DNA of 53,907 bases from Alphaproteobacteria bacterium (lineage in GTDB: Bacteria > Pseudomonadota > Alphaproteobacteria > UBA7985 > JAUIBT01). Below, piece by piece: positions 32,125 through 53,907 of this stretch; positions within the stretch are counted from its first letter, which is position 1, and each line of letters starts with the position of its first letter. The position numbers and the translations under genes were made by a program. A model generated the notes under the pieces. The model was given only the letters and a program-made list of their open reading frames with translations. It ran no database searches and was not told where the DNA came from. The stretch lies in NCBI GenBank assembly GCA_030432195.1, contig JAUIHE010000005.1, positions 1 to 53,907 of the forward strand, written 5' to 3'.

Positions 32125-32223
32125 GGCGGAAGGCTGGAGCGGACGGCTCCCTCGCCAACCCGGTCAGGTCCGAAAGGAAGCAGCCGTAACGAGTTCGATC
32201 CGGGTCGAGCCAGTCTTCCACCT
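32125..32223 (+). ncRNA. ffs: Bacterial small signal recognition particle RNA (4.5S)
   Basis: Hallmark loop 'GGTCAGGTCCGAAAGGAAGCAGCC' with terminal helix GGAAGGCTGG/CCAGTCTTCC; located upstream of dnaX. Confidence 0.93.
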
Positions 32224-46975: not shown

Positions 46976-47920
46976 ATGACGCTGCCTTTCCATATGCACC
47001 TGGTCTCCGATTCCACCGGCGAGACCATCAACACCGTCGCGCGGGCTTGTTTGGCGCAGTTTGAGGGGGTTCAGGTCGAATTGCACGTCTGGTCGCTCAT
47101 TAAGTCACCGACACAGCTCAATGCCGTGATCGAGGCCATTCGCGTGTTGCCGGGACCGGTTCTTTATACAGTCGTTGACGAAGCGCTGCGTCGGGATTTG
47201 GAGCGCGCTTGCCGGGCCATGGGAACACCCTCCGTGCCGATCTTGGATCGCCCCATCGCGATGTTGTCCGCCTTTTTTGGCGTTGAGACGGTCGGCAAAC
47301 CCGGCCGTCAACACGAGCTGAGCCCAGAATACTTTAAGCGCATTGCCGCCATGGACTTTGCCATGCGCTGCGACGATGGCCAAAGCGAAGAGTACTACCG
47401 CGAGGCTGATATCATTCTTGTCGGCGTGTCGCGCACCTCTAAGACGCCCACGTCGGTCATCTTGGCTCAAAGAGGCATTAAAGCAGCCAACATTCCGCTG
47501 GTTCCCGGTCGTCCTTTCAACGAAAGCTTGGTCGCTTTGAAAAAGCCGCTGTTTGTCGGTCTGATCAATGATCCACGCAAGCTATCCGAGGTCCGGCGCT
47601 CGCGCCTGGAGCATTTGGGGCAAATCCCTTCCACCGACTATGTTGATGTCGATGCGATCCGCGAGGAAATTAGGAACGCGCGTCGGCTCTATACCAAGCA
47701 TCGTTGGCCAGTGATTGATGTCTCGCGCCGTTCGATCGAGGAGACCGCCGCCCAGGTTATGATCTTGTACAACAAGCGGCAAGCAGAGCTCACGGCAGGC
47801 GAGCCAGCGCCCGCGGCCCCAGAAGCAGCTCCAGGAGCAGCTCCAGGAGCGGCCCCAGGAGAAGCCCCTGGAGAAGCCCCTAGAACGCAGAACAGCGACA
47901 CCACGCCCAATGCGGGCTAG
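46976..47920 (+). CDS. Pyruvate, water dikinase regulatory protein (PPSR/DUF299)
   Basis: 'FHMHLVSDSTGETINTVARACLAQF', 'ILVGVSRTSKTPTSVILAQRGIKAANIPLVPG'. Confidence 0.93.
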   Translation: MTLPFHMHLVSDSTGETINTVARACLAQFEGVQVELHVWSLIKSPTQLNAVIEAIRVLPGPVLYTVVDEALRRDLERACRAMGTPSVPILDRPIAMLSAFFGVETVGKPGRQHELSPEYFKRIAAMDFAMRCDDGQSEEYYREADIILVGVSRTSKTPTSVILAQRGIKAANIPLVPGRPFNESLVALKKPLFVGLINDPRKLSEVRRSRLEHLGQIPSTDYVDVDAIREEIRNARRLYTKHRWPVIDVSRRSIEETAAQVMILYNKRQAELTAGEPAPAAPEAAPGAAPGAAPGEAPGEAPRTQNSDTTPNAG

Positions 47921-48050
47921 CAACCGGCCCAAACCCCAAGCTTGCCTAAATCTTAAGCAAATTTGGGGCCAAGCAAATTTGGGGCCAAGCAGGACTAGGA
48001 CCGAGCCAGAAAACCAATCGGGTTGACCAAAAACAGAAAGCTTTGATCCC

Positions 48051-48716
48051 GTGAAGACGGACCATTCCAAAATTGCTTTGTCGAAATTTTCAAGCACAGG
48101 CCTGACGCTGACAGACGACAGCCCGCCGCTCGTCTTGGCCTCCGGATCGGCAATTCGCCGACAGTTGTTGGTCAACGCCGGCCTAAGTTTTGTCGTCGAG
48201 CCTGCCCACGTCGATGAAGCCCAGGTCAAGCAGGACCTGGCGCGCGAAGGGGCAAGCGCGGAATCTCTGGCCGAGACGCTTGCAGAATTGAAGGCCCGGC
48301 AAGTTGCTTTGCGCCACCCCGAGGCGCTGGTGTTGGGCTGCGATCAGGTTCTGGCCTGCGGCTCGGTCTTGTTTGATAAACCCGCCGACCTGGATCATGT
48401 GGCCGGGCATCTGCGCGCTCTGTCGGGCAAGACCCACAGCCTTCACGTCTCTGCCGTTATTCAGCAGGGCGAGCAGCGGATTTGGCACGTCAATCGTCGC
48501 GCCGACTTGACTATGCGCGCGCTAAGCGATGCCTATATTGCCCGCTATGTTGAGGCGGTTGGCCAAGAGGTCATGTCGTCGGTCGGGGCCTATCAGCTCG
48601 AAGGTCTGGGCGCGCAGCTGTTTTCCCGCATCGAGGGTGACTATTTCACTATCCTAGGCTTGCCCCTGCTGGACATCCTGGGCTTCTTGCGCTTGAGGGG
48701 GGATCTTCCAGCATGA
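48051..48716 (+). CDS. maf: Maf-family nucleotide pyrophosphatase
   Basis: 'LVLASGSAIRRQLLVNAGL', 'VLGCDQVLACG', 'GAYQLEGLGAQLFSRIEGDYFTILGLPLLDIL'. Confidence 0.93.
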   Translation: MKTDHSKIALSKFSSTGLTLTDDSPPLVLASGSAIRRQLLVNAGLSFVVEPAHVDEAQVKQDLAREGASAESLAETLAELKARQVALRHPEALVLGCDQVLACGSVLFDKPADLDHVAGHLRALSGKTHSLHVSAVIQQGEQRIWHVNRRADLTMRALSDAYIARYVEAVGQEVMSSVGAYQLEGLGAQLFSRIEGDYFTILGLPLLDILGFLRLRGDLPA

Positions 48717-49573
48717 TGACGGGCAAAGCCGAACGCGCGGGGGTCATGGGCTGGCCCATAGCGCACTCCAAATCCCCGCAACTGCACGGCCATTGGCTGG
48801 AGCGATACGGCGTTGATGGGGCCTATATTCCCTTGCCGGTCGCTCCAGAAGACCTGAGCACCGCCGTCGCTGGCCTGAAGGCGTTGGGGTTTGCGGGCTG
48901 GAATGTGACCATCCCGCACAAGCAAGACATGCTGAAGCACGTTGACATGCTGAGCCCCGAGGCCAAGGCCATCGGTGCGGTCAATACGGTCATTCGACAA
49001 GACGACGGCCGCTACCTGGGGCACAACACCGATGCTTACGGTTTTATGGAAAATTTGCGCCAGGTACAGCCTGATTTTGATTTTCAAGGAAAAACCGCGT
49101 TGTTGCTGGGTGCGGGTGGCGCGAGCCGGGCGGTTGTTCAAGGCCTATTGGCCGCAGGTGTGCGCCATCTTAGCATCGCCAATCGCAGCCTTGATCGGGC
49201 CGAAGCACTGGCGGGCGACTTTCGTCAGACCTTTCAAAAGGTGCCCGGCCTGGTTTGCCAAGCGATCGCCTGGAACGATGCCAGCCAGGCTGCCGCAAGC
49301 GCTCAGATTTTGGTCAACGCGACCAGTCTTGGCATGGAGGGAAAATCCAGCCTCAACCTTGAGTTGGACGCGCTGCCGACTAGCGCGCTGGTCACAGATT
49401 TGGTTTATACCCCCCTTGAAACACCGCTGTTGGCTTGGGCGCGCGCCCGCGGCAACCCGACGGTCGATGGCTTGGGCATGCTGTTGCACCAAGCCCGCGC
49501 GGGCTTTGAAGCTTGGTTCAAGACCAGCGTCATGGTGGACGAGGCGCTCCGCCAAGCCGTGCTGTCGAGCTAG
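48713..49573 (+). CDS. aroE: Shikimate dehydrogenase AroE
   Basis: 'GVMGWPIAHSKSPQLHGHWLERYGVDGAYIPL', 'NVTIPHKQ', 'LLLGAGGASRAV'. Confidence 0.94.
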   Translation: MMTGKAERAGVMGWPIAHSKSPQLHGHWLERYGVDGAYIPLPVAPEDLSTAVAGLKALGFAGWNVTIPHKQDMLKHVDMLSPEAKAIGAVNTVIRQDDGRYLGHNTDAYGFMENLRQVQPDFDFQGKTALLLGAGGASRAVVQGLLAAGVRHLSIANRSLDRAEALAGDFRQTFQKVPGLVCQAIAWNDASQAAASAQILVNATSLGMEGKSSLNLELDALPTSALVTDLVYTPLETPLLAWARARGNPTVDGLGMLLHQARAGFEAWFKTSVMVDEALRQAVLSS

Positions 49574-49588
49574 GCTTCTGGAGGGCGC

Positions 49589-50269
49589 ATGAAGATCATC
49601 GGCGTTACCGGCTCTATCGCAATGGGCAAGTCCACCGCTTCGGCCATGTTGGCGTGCATGGGCTGCCCGGTTCACAACGCCGATCAGGTCGTGCATCAGC
49701 TGATGGCGCGCGGCGGCGCGGCTGTCGAGCCCGTGGCGGCGCTGTTTCCGGATGCGTTGCGTCAGGGGGCTATTCACCGTCCGACCTTGGGCCAAGCCGT
49801 GTTTGGCCAGCCCGAACGCTTGGCGCAGCTAGAGGCGGTGCTGCACCCTATGGTTCACCGTGCCCTAAAGCGCTTTTTGTTGGATCACCAGCGCGTTGGC
49901 CGCCCTGCTGTGGTGATTGATGTGCCTCTGCTGTTCGAGGTCAAGGCCGATCGCCGCTGTGATATGGTGCTGGTGGTGGATTGTTCGCCAGCCCTGCAAC
50001 AACAGCGCTTTTTGCAGCGCCCGGGTGCCAAGCTGGAAAAATTGCGGGCCATTCGCGCGCATCAAATGCCGCAAGCCGAAAAGCGCCGCCGTGCAGATCG
50101 CATCATTCCCACCGGTGCGGGCAAGGCCGCCACCTGGCAGGCGCTGGCCGCGGCACACCGGCGCGTCTTGTCGGCGGACTGGTCTCGGCCCCCGGTCTGG
50201 CCGATTGATGCCTATCAGAACCCCTCGTTTCGTGGGGCCTTGCATACCCCCCGTCTTAAGGGGCTATAA
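49589..50269 (+). CDS. coaE: Dephospho-CoA kinase CoaE
   Basis: '[19 protein letters not shown]', '[10 protein letters not shown]'. Confidence 0.93.
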
Positions 50270-50306
50270 CAGGGGCTCCCCGACGCGCAGTAAGGATGCC
50301 CGCCGT

Positions 50307-51062
50307 ATGATCCGTGAAATCGTCCTAGATACTGAGACCACTGGTTTTGAGCCCAGCGAAGGGCATCGCATCGTTGAGATCGGCTGTATCGAGCTGATCA
50401 ATCACGTATCCACCCGCGAAACCTTCCATGTCTACCTGGACCCGGAGCGTGACATGCCCGAAGACGCCGCGCGGGTGCACGGCCTGACGATGGATTTTCT
50501 GGCCGGCAAGCCCAAGTTCCGAGACAAGGCCCAGGCGTTCCTGGATTTCATTCAAGATTCGCGCCTGATTATCCACAATGCCAAGTTCGACATGCGCTTT
50601 TTGAACGCCGAACTGATCGCTGCTGACTATGAGCCGCTGCCCGTGGAGCGCGCGCTGGACACATTAGATTTGGCGCGTCGGAAATTTCCTGGAGCGCAAG
50701 CCAGCCTAGACGCTTTGTGTCGCCGTTTTGAGGTCGATAATTCGGGCCGTGATCTGCACGGCGCTTTGCTGGATTCCGAACTGCTGGCCGAGGTCTATTT
50801 GCACCTGATCGGCGGTCGCCAGCCTGAGCTGATGGGCGGGTTCAATCCGGCTCCAGATGCCACCACCACGACCAGCGCAGGGACCAAGACCCCCGGCGCA
50901 GCGGACTTTTCCAGCCTTGTCGGCCAAAGGGCCTCCGGCGAAAAGCGGCCGCCGCGCGCGTTCCCAGCGAGCGCCGAAGAGCGGGCCGCGCACCGTGCTT
51001 TCCTTGATGAAATCAAAGACCCTGTTTGGCACAAGATCTGGGAAGAGAGCGGCAAGGGATAG
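50307..51062 (+). CDS. dnaQ: DNA polymerase III subunit epsilon
   Basis: '[30 protein letters not shown]', '[16 protein letters not shown]', '[15 protein letters not shown]'; start set at ATG 50307. Confidence 0.94.
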
Positions 51063-51270
51063 CGCGCGAAAAGTCGCCTGTTGGACGCAAGCGCTTCGCC
51101 CTAGACCGCTGACAAGGCGCGCGCGCCGTTGGTTGCGCGCCATCGCCTGTGAGGGTGGCCTCCAGGCCAAAATCAGGGGCGGGTACCACGAACAATACAT
51201 AAACAACCAACAAGCGATAAAAGAAATTGCCATTATATTGCGCATATCATAGAACTAATCACGAACAAAA

Positions 51271-51290
51271 AGCTTGGCAATCGCCGAGCT
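51271..51290 (+). promoter_or_regulatory. 5'UTR hairpin (AGCTTGGC-aatc-GCCGAGCT) ahead of the first MANTF gene
   Basis: 8-bp stem with one G-U, AATC loop, followed by GATAGGAGT SD; homologous hairpin at 53047-53064. Confidence 0.7.
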
Positions 51291-51309
51291 TCCTGATAGG
51301 AGTAACTCT

Positions 51310-51855
51310 ATGGCAAACACCTTTTACCCCAATCCGCTATTGGCGAGCGCTGCAGTCTCAACCTATGGACCCAATCGCCAGTTGAGAATGCGGCCGCGCA
51401 ACGCGGTCCTGCGCGGCGAAGCCGTCGCGCGGATTTTGTACCCACCCGTCGAGGTAAAACCCCACAGCTGGCGTTCAAAACACTTTGAGCAGCCCAATGC
51501 ACCGCCTGTAAAGCCGGGCAAGATCACCTACGTTGACCGCAGGGATGACGGCATCAGGCCGCTACCTGGATACTTGGTTCACCGAAAACGTGGTGAACCA
51601 AGAGCTCTTGAAGGCAGAATAGCCAAGCAAGTATGCGCTCTTACAATTGGAGGTTTGGGCGCGATGCATGGATCAAAAGCTGGCCCATGGGGCACCCTTG
51701 CAGGCGGCGTCCTCGGCGGCGTCCTCGGCGGGGTCTTGGGTGAGATTGGCTGTGATCAGGCTGGCGAATTCAATCTTCCCAGTATTCAGCCAGGCATTCC
51801 AAGTCCAAATGGCAGGATAGACCACAACGGCAATACGATTAACCCTCACCTCTAA
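51310..51855 (+). CDS. MANTF-module protein A: conserved N-terminal module + Gly-zipper segment (candidate bacteriocin-like toxin)
   Basis: 181 aa; paralog of 53085-53636; 'GGLGAMHGSKAGPWGTLAGGVLGGVLGGVLGEIG' glycine-zipper; SD GATAGGAGT. Confidence 0.7.
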   Translation: MANTFYPNPLLASAAVSTYGPNRQLRMRPRNAVLRGEAVARILYPPVEVKPHSWRSKHFEQPNAPPVKPGKITYVDRRDDGIRPLPGYLVHRKRGEPRALEGRIAKQVCALTIGGLGAMHGSKAGPWGTLAGGVLGGVLGGVLGEIGCDQAGEFNLPSIQPGIPSPNGRIDHNGNTINPHL

Positions 51856-51922
51856 ATAAGGCTTACGCAATGGGAGTGACTTAGCAATCACTCCCTTCTT
51901 GCTATATGCGGATAGAATCCAT

Positions 51923-52081
51923 ATGTCAAAAACCACTCATTTTGCTATTATATTTGCTATAATGCTTGTAGCAAATATAATAAGAGAAGCTCATGACATC
52001 AGCTTTTCTTTATATCTTGTTGCAATTGGAGCTTCCGCCTTTATGATAGGAGAGATATATAAACAAACAAATGAAAATTAA
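51923..52081 (+). CDS. Small (52 aa) two-helix membrane protein, candidate immunity for protein A
   Basis: MSKTTHFAIIFAIMLVANIIREAHDISFSLYLVAIGASAFMIGEIYKQTNEN; 67 bp downstream of protein A. Confidence 0.5.
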   Translation: MSKTTHFAIIFAIMLVANIIREAHDISFSLYLVAIGASAFMIGEIYKQTNEN

Positions 52082-52399
52082 GTCGAGAAAATTTTGCAAA
52101 TAATTACTATGTAATATGAACTATTAAACTATCACACACTTGTAAACATAAAAATAATTTTGCTATGTATTACACCTAAATGTGTATAGCAATTACAGCC
52201 GTTGTTATACCTACTTTTCGTGAATATATGCGTACCGTTGCATGCGTTTAATATAATTGTTTGTAAGATCACTTCGTACATGCGGCTGTCAATACCTTGA
52301 GTTAATTACATATATGATGTTGTTATTTACTATAAATTGATTTCATCAAATTTGGTAAGTTAATAGTATATAAATTACACTTAGTTGGCGATATATATT

Positions 52400-52630
52400 A
52401 TGAATAAAAGCAATCTAAAAATAAGTCTAATATATGCAATCTTGACAACTGTAATGTGGGAAGTTGTAATGTCTATTATAGCTTGGAAGGAATATAAGCT
52501 ATATTTGGTGTCATTTACCGCCCCTATCATGATTTTGGTTCTTACATATATCACTTATAGGCGACTAAATAAAAAAAATCCAAAACAATCATATTTGGAA
52601 GCAATAAGTGTGACTTATCTGCAAGGATGA
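52400..52630 (+). CDS. Small (76 aa) two-helix membrane protein
   Basis: MNKSNLKISLIYAILTTVMWEVVMSIIAWKEYKLYLVSFTAPIMILVLTYITYRRLNKKNPKQ...; ATG start at 52400. Confidence 0.5.
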   Translation: MNKSNLKISLIYAILTTVMWEVVMSIIAWKEYKLYLVSFTAPIMILVLTYITYRRLNKKNPKQSYLEAISVTYLQG

Positions 52631-52779
52631 ATGCAATTATGGTTCACTTTTATAAAACACAATTTAGATGCCAGCTATCAAAACTCCGCCATGAGTTCCG
52701 TTTAACCCTGTGATCATGAGTTCTTGTACAGGTACCTGTGCACTTGCATTTGATGCTGTTACAGCCGAAATGACGGAAT

Positions 52780-52959
52780 ATGAAACCAATCCTTAAGATA
52801 ATTTTCGGTCTTACTACAATTACGAGCTTTATATTTATTGCTGATAGCCTGTCTCTGGGCGTGCCAGGTGTGATAGGAGCGTCAATTTTATATGCGGTTG
52901 TAGACTATGTTCTCTTTGGCGGGGCCCGCCGTCGCCGCCGACCGCCTGAGCGCCACTGA
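52780..52959 (+). CDS. Small (59 aa) hydrophobic protein with Arg-rich tail; absent from the supplied ORF track
   Basis: Manual translation: MKPILKIIFGLTTITSFIFIADSLSLGVPGVIGASILYAVVDYVLFGGARRRRRPPERH*. Confidence 0.45.
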   Translation: MKPILKIIFGLTTITSFIFIADSLSLGVPGVIGASILYAVVDYVLFGGARRRRRPPERH

Positions 52960-53046
52960 GGCAGTGCCAATCCCGAACTATTAACAGGCGAAAACAAATA
53001 ATTGCACTATCGGCTAATTTGCGATCGAACATATATAGAACAAACC

Positions 53047-53064
53047 TCTTGGCAATCGCCAAGA
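53047..53064 (+). promoter_or_regulatory. 5'UTR hairpin (TCTTGGC-aatc-GCCAAGA) ahead of the second MANTF gene
   Basis: 7-bp perfect stem, same AATC loop and position as 51271-51290. Confidence 0.7.
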
Positions 53065-53084
53065 TCTCTGATAGGAGTGTCTCT

Positions 53085-53636
53085 ATGGCAAACACCTTTG
53101 ACCCTAATCTGCTTTTGGCGCGCGCCTCGGACTCGCCCTACGGTGCGAAGCCCTCGTTGCGCCCGCAACCTTTCAACCCAGCCTTGCGAGGCGAAGCTCT
53201 GAAACGGTTCTTGTATCCACCTGTCAAGGTGCGGTCACACACCTGGCGTTCAAAGCACGACGAACAGCCCATCACAACGCCTGCGCACCGACGTACAGGT
53301 CCACAAGCCTCTGGGCCCAAGATAACCTACCCACACGCTTATGTTCGGCGCGGACCAGGTTATCCGGAAAACGGCCCAACACCTGCAACGGCTTACTCAA
53401 GACAAGCGATTGCAAAGAAATCTTCCCCTACGCCGGTGAATTGGAAAAGATTCTCCCGGTGTGGCTTGGACATCTTCAACGGCGCTCGTACTGGGGCCTG
53501 GGCCTTCGGAGCGCCGGGAGCAGCTATTGGAGCGATTTCACCTGATCCTGCCACGACGATAGCTGGCGCTGGAATAGGCGCAGGTATTGGCTCGGTTGTT
53601 GGCGGCCTGGCGGGCTATGCAGGCTCGGACGCCTGA
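53085..53636 (+). CDS. MANTF-module protein B: conserved N-terminal module + Gly-zipper C-terminus (candidate bacteriocin-like toxin)
   Basis: 183 aa; 'CGLDIFNGARTGAWAFGAPGAAIGAI...AGAGIGAGIGSVVGGLAGYAG'; SD GATAGGAGT. Confidence 0.7.
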   Translation: MANTFDPNLLLARASDSPYGAKPSLRPQPFNPALRGEALKRFLYPPVKVRSHTWRSKHDEQPITTPAHRRTGPQASGPKITYPHAYVRRGPGYPENGPTPATAYSRQAIAKKSSPTPVNWKRFSRCGLDIFNGARTGAWAFGAPGAAIGAISPDPATTIAGAGIGAGIGSVVGGLAGYAGSDA

Positions 53637-53705
53637 CGACAAGGCTCGATGTCTCCGAAATAGAGCCACACACCGGCTGGTCCTGTCATAAGAAAGAAAC
53701 GCTCT

Positions 53706-53906
53706 GTGGTCTTCTTGCTGCTCGCAATCGTTGGAATTTATGTGCTGGTAAGCTTCGTGACTATAACGGTTGCTTATCACTTGCTGAAAGCCAAGGACGT
53801 CAAAGACCCCAAGAAGGATTCCCGCATCTATGGTTCTTTGGCGGCGCTGGCGATCGTGCTCTACTATGTGCCAGAATACATTAAGCTCGTTATGAAAATC
53901 TGCTGA
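53706..53906 (+). CDS. Small (66 aa) two-helix membrane protein, candidate immunity for protein B
   Basis: GTG start; VVFLLLAIVGIYVLVSFVTITVAYHLL...IYGSLAALAIVLYYVPEYIKLVMKIC; 69 bp after protein B. Confidence 0.5.
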   Translation: MVFLLLAIVGIYVLVSFVTITVAYHLLKAKDVKDPKKDSRIYGSLAALAIVLYYVPEYIKLVMKIC

Positions 53907-53907
53907 T

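What the first reader, a model, noticed from the sequence alone, without database searches (positions are those of the whole stretch)
51271..51290. Conserved 5'UTR hairpin with compensatory change ahead of both MANTF genes
A: AGCTTGGC-AATC-GCCGAGCT; B: TCTTGGC-AATC-GCCAAGA (53047-53064). Counting from the loop, pair 4 is T-G in A and T-A in B, and pair 7 is G-C in A and T-A in B (a compensatory double change). The AATC loop, the distance to the SD (GATAGGAGT) and the first codons (ATGGCAAACACCTTT) are conserved, while flanking DNA is less similar. This suggests selection on RNA structure: a regulatory leader that controls translation or stability, or binds a protein or sRNA.
Basis: seen in the sequence. 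Interest (0 to 1): 0.72.

Follow-up and report, generated by a model that had tools for sequence, protein, structure and literature searches.

The report
Hairpin leader on SOS-induced toxin-like genes
Two toxin-like genes that are probably switched on by DNA damage share a small RNA hairpin near the predicted start of their messages; relatives keep the hairpin while changing its letters, so the shape itself seems to be kept by selection, probably to tune message lifetime or translation.

Summary
The hairpins are real and at the stated places. The AATC loop is not general, one close copy has a T·T mismatch, and four relatives lack the hairpin. Each hairpin lies just downstream of an alphaproteobacterial LexA (SOS) box, GAAC-N7-GAAC, which overlaps the -10 of a TTGNNN-N17-TAGAAC promoter; lexA and ssb of the same genome carry the same box. 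The hairpin therefore starts about 8-10 nt from the predicted mRNA start. The genes encode a genus-restricted family with shared N-termini and swapped, often glycine-rich C-termini, usually followed by a small membrane-protein ORF, as in SOS-induced bacteriocin/immunity pairs. Similar hairpins follow LexA boxes of unrelated SOS genes here: ssb, and an orthologous pair whose stems share little sequence. Best reading: a 5'-proximal hairpin on short SOS-induced mRNAs, most likely setting message stability or acting as an insulator. SD hiding (in silico) and CsrA binding (csrA not found) are not supported. Mechanism is inferred; nothing was measured.

The parts
51227..51255 (+). Promoter of gene A: -35 TTGCCA (51227-51232), 17-nt spacer, -10 TAGAAC (51250-51255)
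   Evidence: same -35/17-nt/-10 layout, with TTG at -35, in 11 of 12 family leaders tabulated
51252..51266 (+). LexA/SOS box A, GAACTAATCACGAAC
   Evidence: same motif ahead of lexA and ssb; literature motif GTTC-N7-GTTC for alphaproteobacteria (PMC3323433)
51270..51291 (+).
51295..51303 (+). Shine-Dalgarno sequence GATAGGAGT of gene A
51310..51855 (+). Gene A, 181 aa, MANTF N-terminus, glycine-zipper-like C-terminal stretch, ends GNTINPHL
51923..52081 (+). Small hydrophobic ORF (52 aa), candidate immunity gene of A; also follows orthologue L014
52400..52630 (+). 76-aa ORF with two TM-like segments, possible orphan immunity gene
52780..52959 (+). 59-aa ORF with two TM-like segments; nearly identical DNA lies upstream of the B orthologue in a sister genome
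53002..53030 (+). Promoter of gene B: -35 TTGCAC, 17-nt spacer, -10 TCGAAC
53027..53041 (+). LexA/SOS box B, GAACATATATAGAAC
53047..53064 (+). Leader hairpin B (7 bp, loop AATC)
53070..53078 (+). Shine-Dalgarno sequence GATAGGAGT of gene B
53085..53636 (+). Gene B, 183 aa, MANTF N-terminus, RRGPGYPENGPTPATAY motif, glycine-zipper-like C-terminus
53706..53906 (+). 66-aa ORF with two TM-like segments, candidate immunity gene of B

Best explanation
Each hairpin is a 5'-proximal RNA stem-loop in the short leader of a LexA-repressed mRNA for a bacteriocin-like protein. On DNA damage LexA leaves the GAAC-N7-GAAC box over the -10 element, transcription starts at about the second half-site, and the message begins with 3-9 unpaired bases, a 6-9 bp hairpin with a 4-nt loop (4-6 nt in other SOS genes), then the SD and the gene. 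The hairpin most likely slows 5'-end-dependent decay of this short-leader mRNA and/or insulates the ribosome site from upstream pairing. Supported by computation: hairpin, covariation, LexA box and promoter layout, gene family. Inferred: transcription start, SOS induction, effect on stability or translation, toxin and immunity function.
For: Covariation over 7 distinct leaders: 95.9% of cells paired, 5 of 7 pairs changed on both sides, covariation score 0.646 against 0.246 shuffled (0/500 reach it), best at slide 0. A covariance model run on the three genus genomes gives hits below E=1 only ahead of this gene family, and these are the six seeds. LexA box and promoter at a nearly fixed offset from the hairpin; lexA and ssb carry the same box. 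Hairpins at about the same offset after the box in ssb of three genomes and in the orthologues L127/L128 with largely different stems. 6 of 13 SOS leader types carry a hairpin against a 6.6% background. Precedents: 5' UTR stem-loops stabilise ompA-type mRNAs and Acinetobacter recA mRNA (PMC7509114).
Against: Not every SOS leader or family member has it: L063, L067, L003, L071, lexA, the CHAP lysin, L093, L124 and L126 lack it. L014 has a mismatch in the stem. With the start predicted here, up to 9 nt are unpaired before the stem, more than classical ompA-type protection tolerates (own knowledge). No transcript, half-life or induction data exist. The 6-of-13 test was framed after seeing the data and its leaders are not all independent.
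Confidence: 0.55

Rival explanations
1. Translational control element: the hairpin takes part in a structured leader whose ribosome access depends on refolding, a standby site or an antisense sRNA, as in the SOS-induced toxin mRNA tisB.
For: SOS toxin precedent with a structured leader and standby site (PMC7708055). Short complementarity around the SD is predicted in several leaders.
Against: Computed SD accessibility does not change consistently when the hairpin is masked. Loop and stem sequences are not conserved between types. No csrA found. Leaders are short (about 46 nt), unlike tisB.
Confidence: 0.2
2. DNA-level palindrome: a second operator next to the LexA box rather than an RNA element.
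For: Inverted repeat next to a promoter; A, B and their orthologues share the sequence.
Against: Stem sequences differ between types (GCTTGGC, TTCGGC, GCTTGGG, GATCGCT, AAGCGG, ATCAGA) and G-U pairs are tolerated, which suits RNA better than a sequence-specific site.
Confidence: 0.08
3. Inheritance and chance: A and B are duplicates and simply share an ancestral palindrome; other hairpins are background.
For: A and B share leader and N-terminus; 6 bp hairpins at this spacing have a 6.6% background rate; some members lack it.
Against: Covariation over seven leaders exceeds all shuffles; re-paired stems in L059 and in L127 against L128; flanking DNA has diverged.
Confidence: 0.12
4. Nascent-RNA hairpin acting on RNA polymerase (early pausing or timing of the SOS promoter) rather than on the finished mRNA.
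For: Stem starts only 3-9 nt from the predicted start and depends on geometry more than sequence.
Against: No U-tract after the stems and no data on transcription; nothing points to pausing specifically.
Confidence: 0.05

Closest known systems
5' UTR mRNA-stabilising stem-loops (E. coli ompA; Acinetobacter baumannii recA; reviewed in PMC7509114)
   Same: Hairpin near the 5' end of an mRNA, ahead of a strong SD; the recA case is also a DNA-damage gene
   Different: More unpaired 5' bases if the predicted start is right; stabilisation not measured; recurs across several genes of one regulon here
tisB/istR-1, SOS-induced toxin mRNA of E. coli (PMC7708055)
   Same: LexA-type control plus leader RNA structure on a toxin-like gene
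   Different: Here the leader is about 46 nt, the product is about 180 aa, and no antisense RNA or standby site was seen
LexA-regulated bacteriocins (colicins and relatives; general knowledge)
   Same: SOS promoter, N-terminal part conserved with swapped C-terminal part, small membrane ORF downstream
   Different: No sequence relation to any known bacteriocin family found in Pfam, NCBIfam or PHROGs
Caulobacter Cdz glycine-zipper bacteriocins (PMC5380434)
   Same: Alphaproteobacterial glycine-zipper proteins with a small membrane immunity protein
   Different: Cdz toxins are about 85 aa, paired with a type I secretion operon and induced in stationary phase; the paper does not mention SOS or LexA

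Membership tests
Alphaproteobacterial LexA regulon | GTTC-N7-GTTC (GAAC-N7-GAAC) box overlapping the promoter | tested here: met
   also ahead of lexA and ssb
Alphaproteobacterial LexA regulon | LexA binding and induction by DNA damage | not testable with these tools
   needs gel shift and mitomycin C RNA-seq
Covarying cis-acting RNA element | base pairs kept through two-sided changes beyond controls | tested here: met
Covarying cis-acting RNA element | match to a described Rfam family | tested here: not met
   only SRP RNA elsewhere in the window
ompA-type 5' mRNA stabiliser | stem at or within a few nt of the transcript 5' end | tested here: inconclusive
   predicted start leaves 3-9 unpaired nt; start not mapped
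ompA-type 5' mRNA stabiliser | longer mRNA half-life dependent on the stem | not testable with these tools
   needs rifampicin chase with stem mutants
CsrA-controlled leader | csrA present in the genome | tested here: not met
   0 of 3 genomes, positive controls found
SOS-regulated bacteriocin with immunity partner | shared N-terminal part with swapped C-terminal part | tested here: met
   L066 and L013 share about their first 65 residues, then diverge
SOS-regulated bacteriocin with immunity partner | small membrane protein encoded next to the toxin | tested here: met
   hydropathy only, some ORFs show one segment above the threshold
SOS-regulated bacteriocin with immunity partner | killing and immunity activity | not testable with these tools
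   needs expression and competition assays
Cdz glycine-zipper bacteriocins | type I secretion genes next to the toxin | tested here: not met
   none recognised among the ORFs at 47000-53907; elsewhere in the genome not searched

The most novel reading that the evidence does not exclude
In this alphaproteobacterial genus a set of LexA-repressed genes, both bacteriocin-like genes and ssb, share a sequence-independent 5'-proximal hairpin placed at a nearly fixed distance from the LexA box, giving the SOS regulon a common post-transcriptional layer, such as joint stabilisation or timed decay of SOS mRNAs, on top of LexA control.
Probability: 0.3. Interest if true: 0.72.

Novelty: new variant of a known kind. 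Interest (0 to 1): 0.5.

Why it matters
If right, it links DNA-damage control of bacteriocin-like genes to a conserved RNA structure at the start of their messages, and it points to a new genus-restricted family of probable SOS-induced toxin/immunity modules. A hairpin kept by geometry, in unrelated genes of one regulon, would be a simple testable case of an RNA layer shared across the SOS response.

Tried and rejected
Coding extension from an upstream TTG: rejected, since L014 has an in-frame TAG in the stem and L017 an in-frame TAG at the SD. Rfam: no match. CsrA control: csrA not found. SD sequestration by the hairpin: no consistent change on masking. Phage or plasmid origin: no relatives of B in viral contigs or plasmids, none of A in phage records. 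Wider family search over 385 class genomes: only the genus plus one weak hit. AlphaFold of protein B: mean pLDDT 47, not used. Pfam and NCBIfam: only weak sub-threshold glycine-zipper matches. Colicin M relation of the second SOS toxin-like family (L093): no Pfam or PDB match, not claimed.

Full report
What is there. The two hairpins are at the stated coordinates. In A the stem can be extended to 9 bp (51270-51291). Relative to dinucleotide shuffles the stems are unusual but not overwhelming on their own, and a single compensatory double change between two paralogues is weak evidence. Related sequences were therefore sought.

Relatives. The window lies in a fragmented alphaproteobacterial genome (3.14 Mb, 224 contigs). 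The family was found only in this genome and two others of the same genus, represented in public records by MAGs JAUIDR01 and JAUIBT01; a few distant class genomes gave only marginal hits. Leaders of the relatives were read directly. Hairpins: A GCTTGGC-AATC-GCCGAGC; its G001 orthologue L014 GCTTGGC-AATC-GCCTAGC (T·T mismatch at pair 4); B TCTTGGC-AATC-GCCAAGA; its G001 orthologue L008 TCTTGGC-AGTC-GCTAAGG (that gene is frameshifted); L017 TTCGGC-GACT-GCCGAA; L065 in G002 GCTTGGG-CTTT-CCCAAGC; L059 in G002 GATCGCT-GTCA-GGTGATC (identical in L061 and L066). Leaders L063, L067, L003 and L071 have none.

Is it structure? On the seven distinct hairpins 95.9% of pair cells are standard pairs, five of seven pairs have changes on both sides, there are ten further pair types, and the covariation score is 0.646 against a shuffled mean of 0.246 (0 of 500 shuffles reach it); sliding the partners by 1-3 columns destroys it. 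Without L059 the result is similar. The sequences are related, so the shuffle count is not a probability. Only geometry (6-9 bp, 4-nt loop, starting a few nt after the LexA box) and a strong SD in most are common; the AATC loop is confined to A, B and L014. In L014 the in-frame upstream reading has a TAG, so the conservation is not coding. A covariance model searched in the three genomes returns only its six seeds below E=1, all ahead of this gene family.

The promoter. Every family leader tabulated has GAAC-N7-GAAC, or one half-site with a single change, overlapping the -10 of a promoter with a 17-nt spacer; 11 of 12 have TTG at -35. GTTC-N7-GTTC is the LexA motif reported for alphaproteobacteria (PMC3323433). 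In this genome the motif occurs 42 times against 369 for its reversed control, and it lies ahead of lexA (C194) and ssb (C25). So these are very probably SOS genes. Transcription should start about at the second half-site, which puts the stem at +8 to +10. The hairpin does not consistently change computed SD accessibility, and csrA was not found.

A wider pattern. ssb in all three genomes has LexA box, hairpin and SD in the same order: GGCGC-TTGCTT-GCGCT, TTGGCGC-GATTGA-GCGCTGG, GGCGTG-TCAC-CGCGCC. In a second toxin-like family, homologues L127 and L128 have hairpins directly after a GAAC-N7-AAAC box whose stems share little sequence: CAAGCGG-ATTCCA-CCGCTTG and ATCAGA-CTGT-TCTGAT. lexA, a CHAP lysin and several others lack it. 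By a uniform rule (at least 6 contiguous pairs, loop 4-6, stem starting 3-10 nt after the start of the second half-site) 6 of 13 SOS leader types have it against a background of 6.6%; the strict rule misses L014 and the G000 ssb leader. The rule was framed after seeing the data, so this is suggestive only.

The genes. The proteins share N-terminal motifs (PHSWRS; RRGPGYPxGGPTPATAY in many) and differ in their C-termini; L013 and L066 share leader and about the first 65 residues and then diverge; A and its orthologue L014 share the C-terminus while L014's N-terminal part resembles B. The C-termini are glycine-rich with sub-threshold glycine-zipper matches. Most are followed by a 52-78 aa hydrophobic ORF with one or two TM-like segments. 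A CHAP/TIGR02594 lysin gene with a LexA box is present in all three genomes. Together this looks like an SOS-induced bacteriocin arsenal with immunity genes and perhaps a release lysin; no activity has been shown.

Mechanism. The likeliest role is a 5'-proximal stabiliser or insulator on short SOS mRNAs, in line with 5' UTR stem-loops that stabilise ompA-type mRNAs and Acinetobacter recA mRNA (PMC7509114). The number of unpaired bases before the stem speaks against a strict ompA mechanism unless the start lies a few bases further downstream. A tisB-like translational role (PMC7708055) remains possible.

Verdict. Observation confirmed; structural selection well supported; interpretation sharpened to an SOS-linked 5' hairpin; mechanism inferred.

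Noticed in passing
L093:1549-2445, L123, L124, L126, L127, L128: Second genus-restricted family (about 300 aa in L093, MGQNG-type and related N-termini) with LexA-type boxes upstream of L093, L124, L126, L127 and L128; no Pfam match for L093; possibly another SOS-induced toxin family.
   Followed up: partly
L116 (G000 C4), L117 (G001 C88), L115 (G002 C28): CHAP/TIGR02594 lysin with a LexA box in all three genomes; in L099 (G002) it is followed by a nuclease-like and a hydrophobic ORF; candidate bacteriocin release cassette.
   Followed up: partly
window 52400-52630 and 52780-52959: Small membrane-protein ORFs between genes A and B that are not directly behind a toxin gene; possible orphan immunity genes.
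   Followed up: partly
L008/L072: The G001 orthologue of gene B is frameshifted, yet its leader hairpin is still pairable with two G-U pairs.
   Followed up: partly
L055/L043 (G000 C146:651-665): LexA-like box GAACATATCATGAAC overlapping the start of a gene for an unknown protein of up to 188 aa.
   Followed up: no
window 32128-32222: Bacterial small SRP RNA (Rfam RF00169).
   Followed up: no
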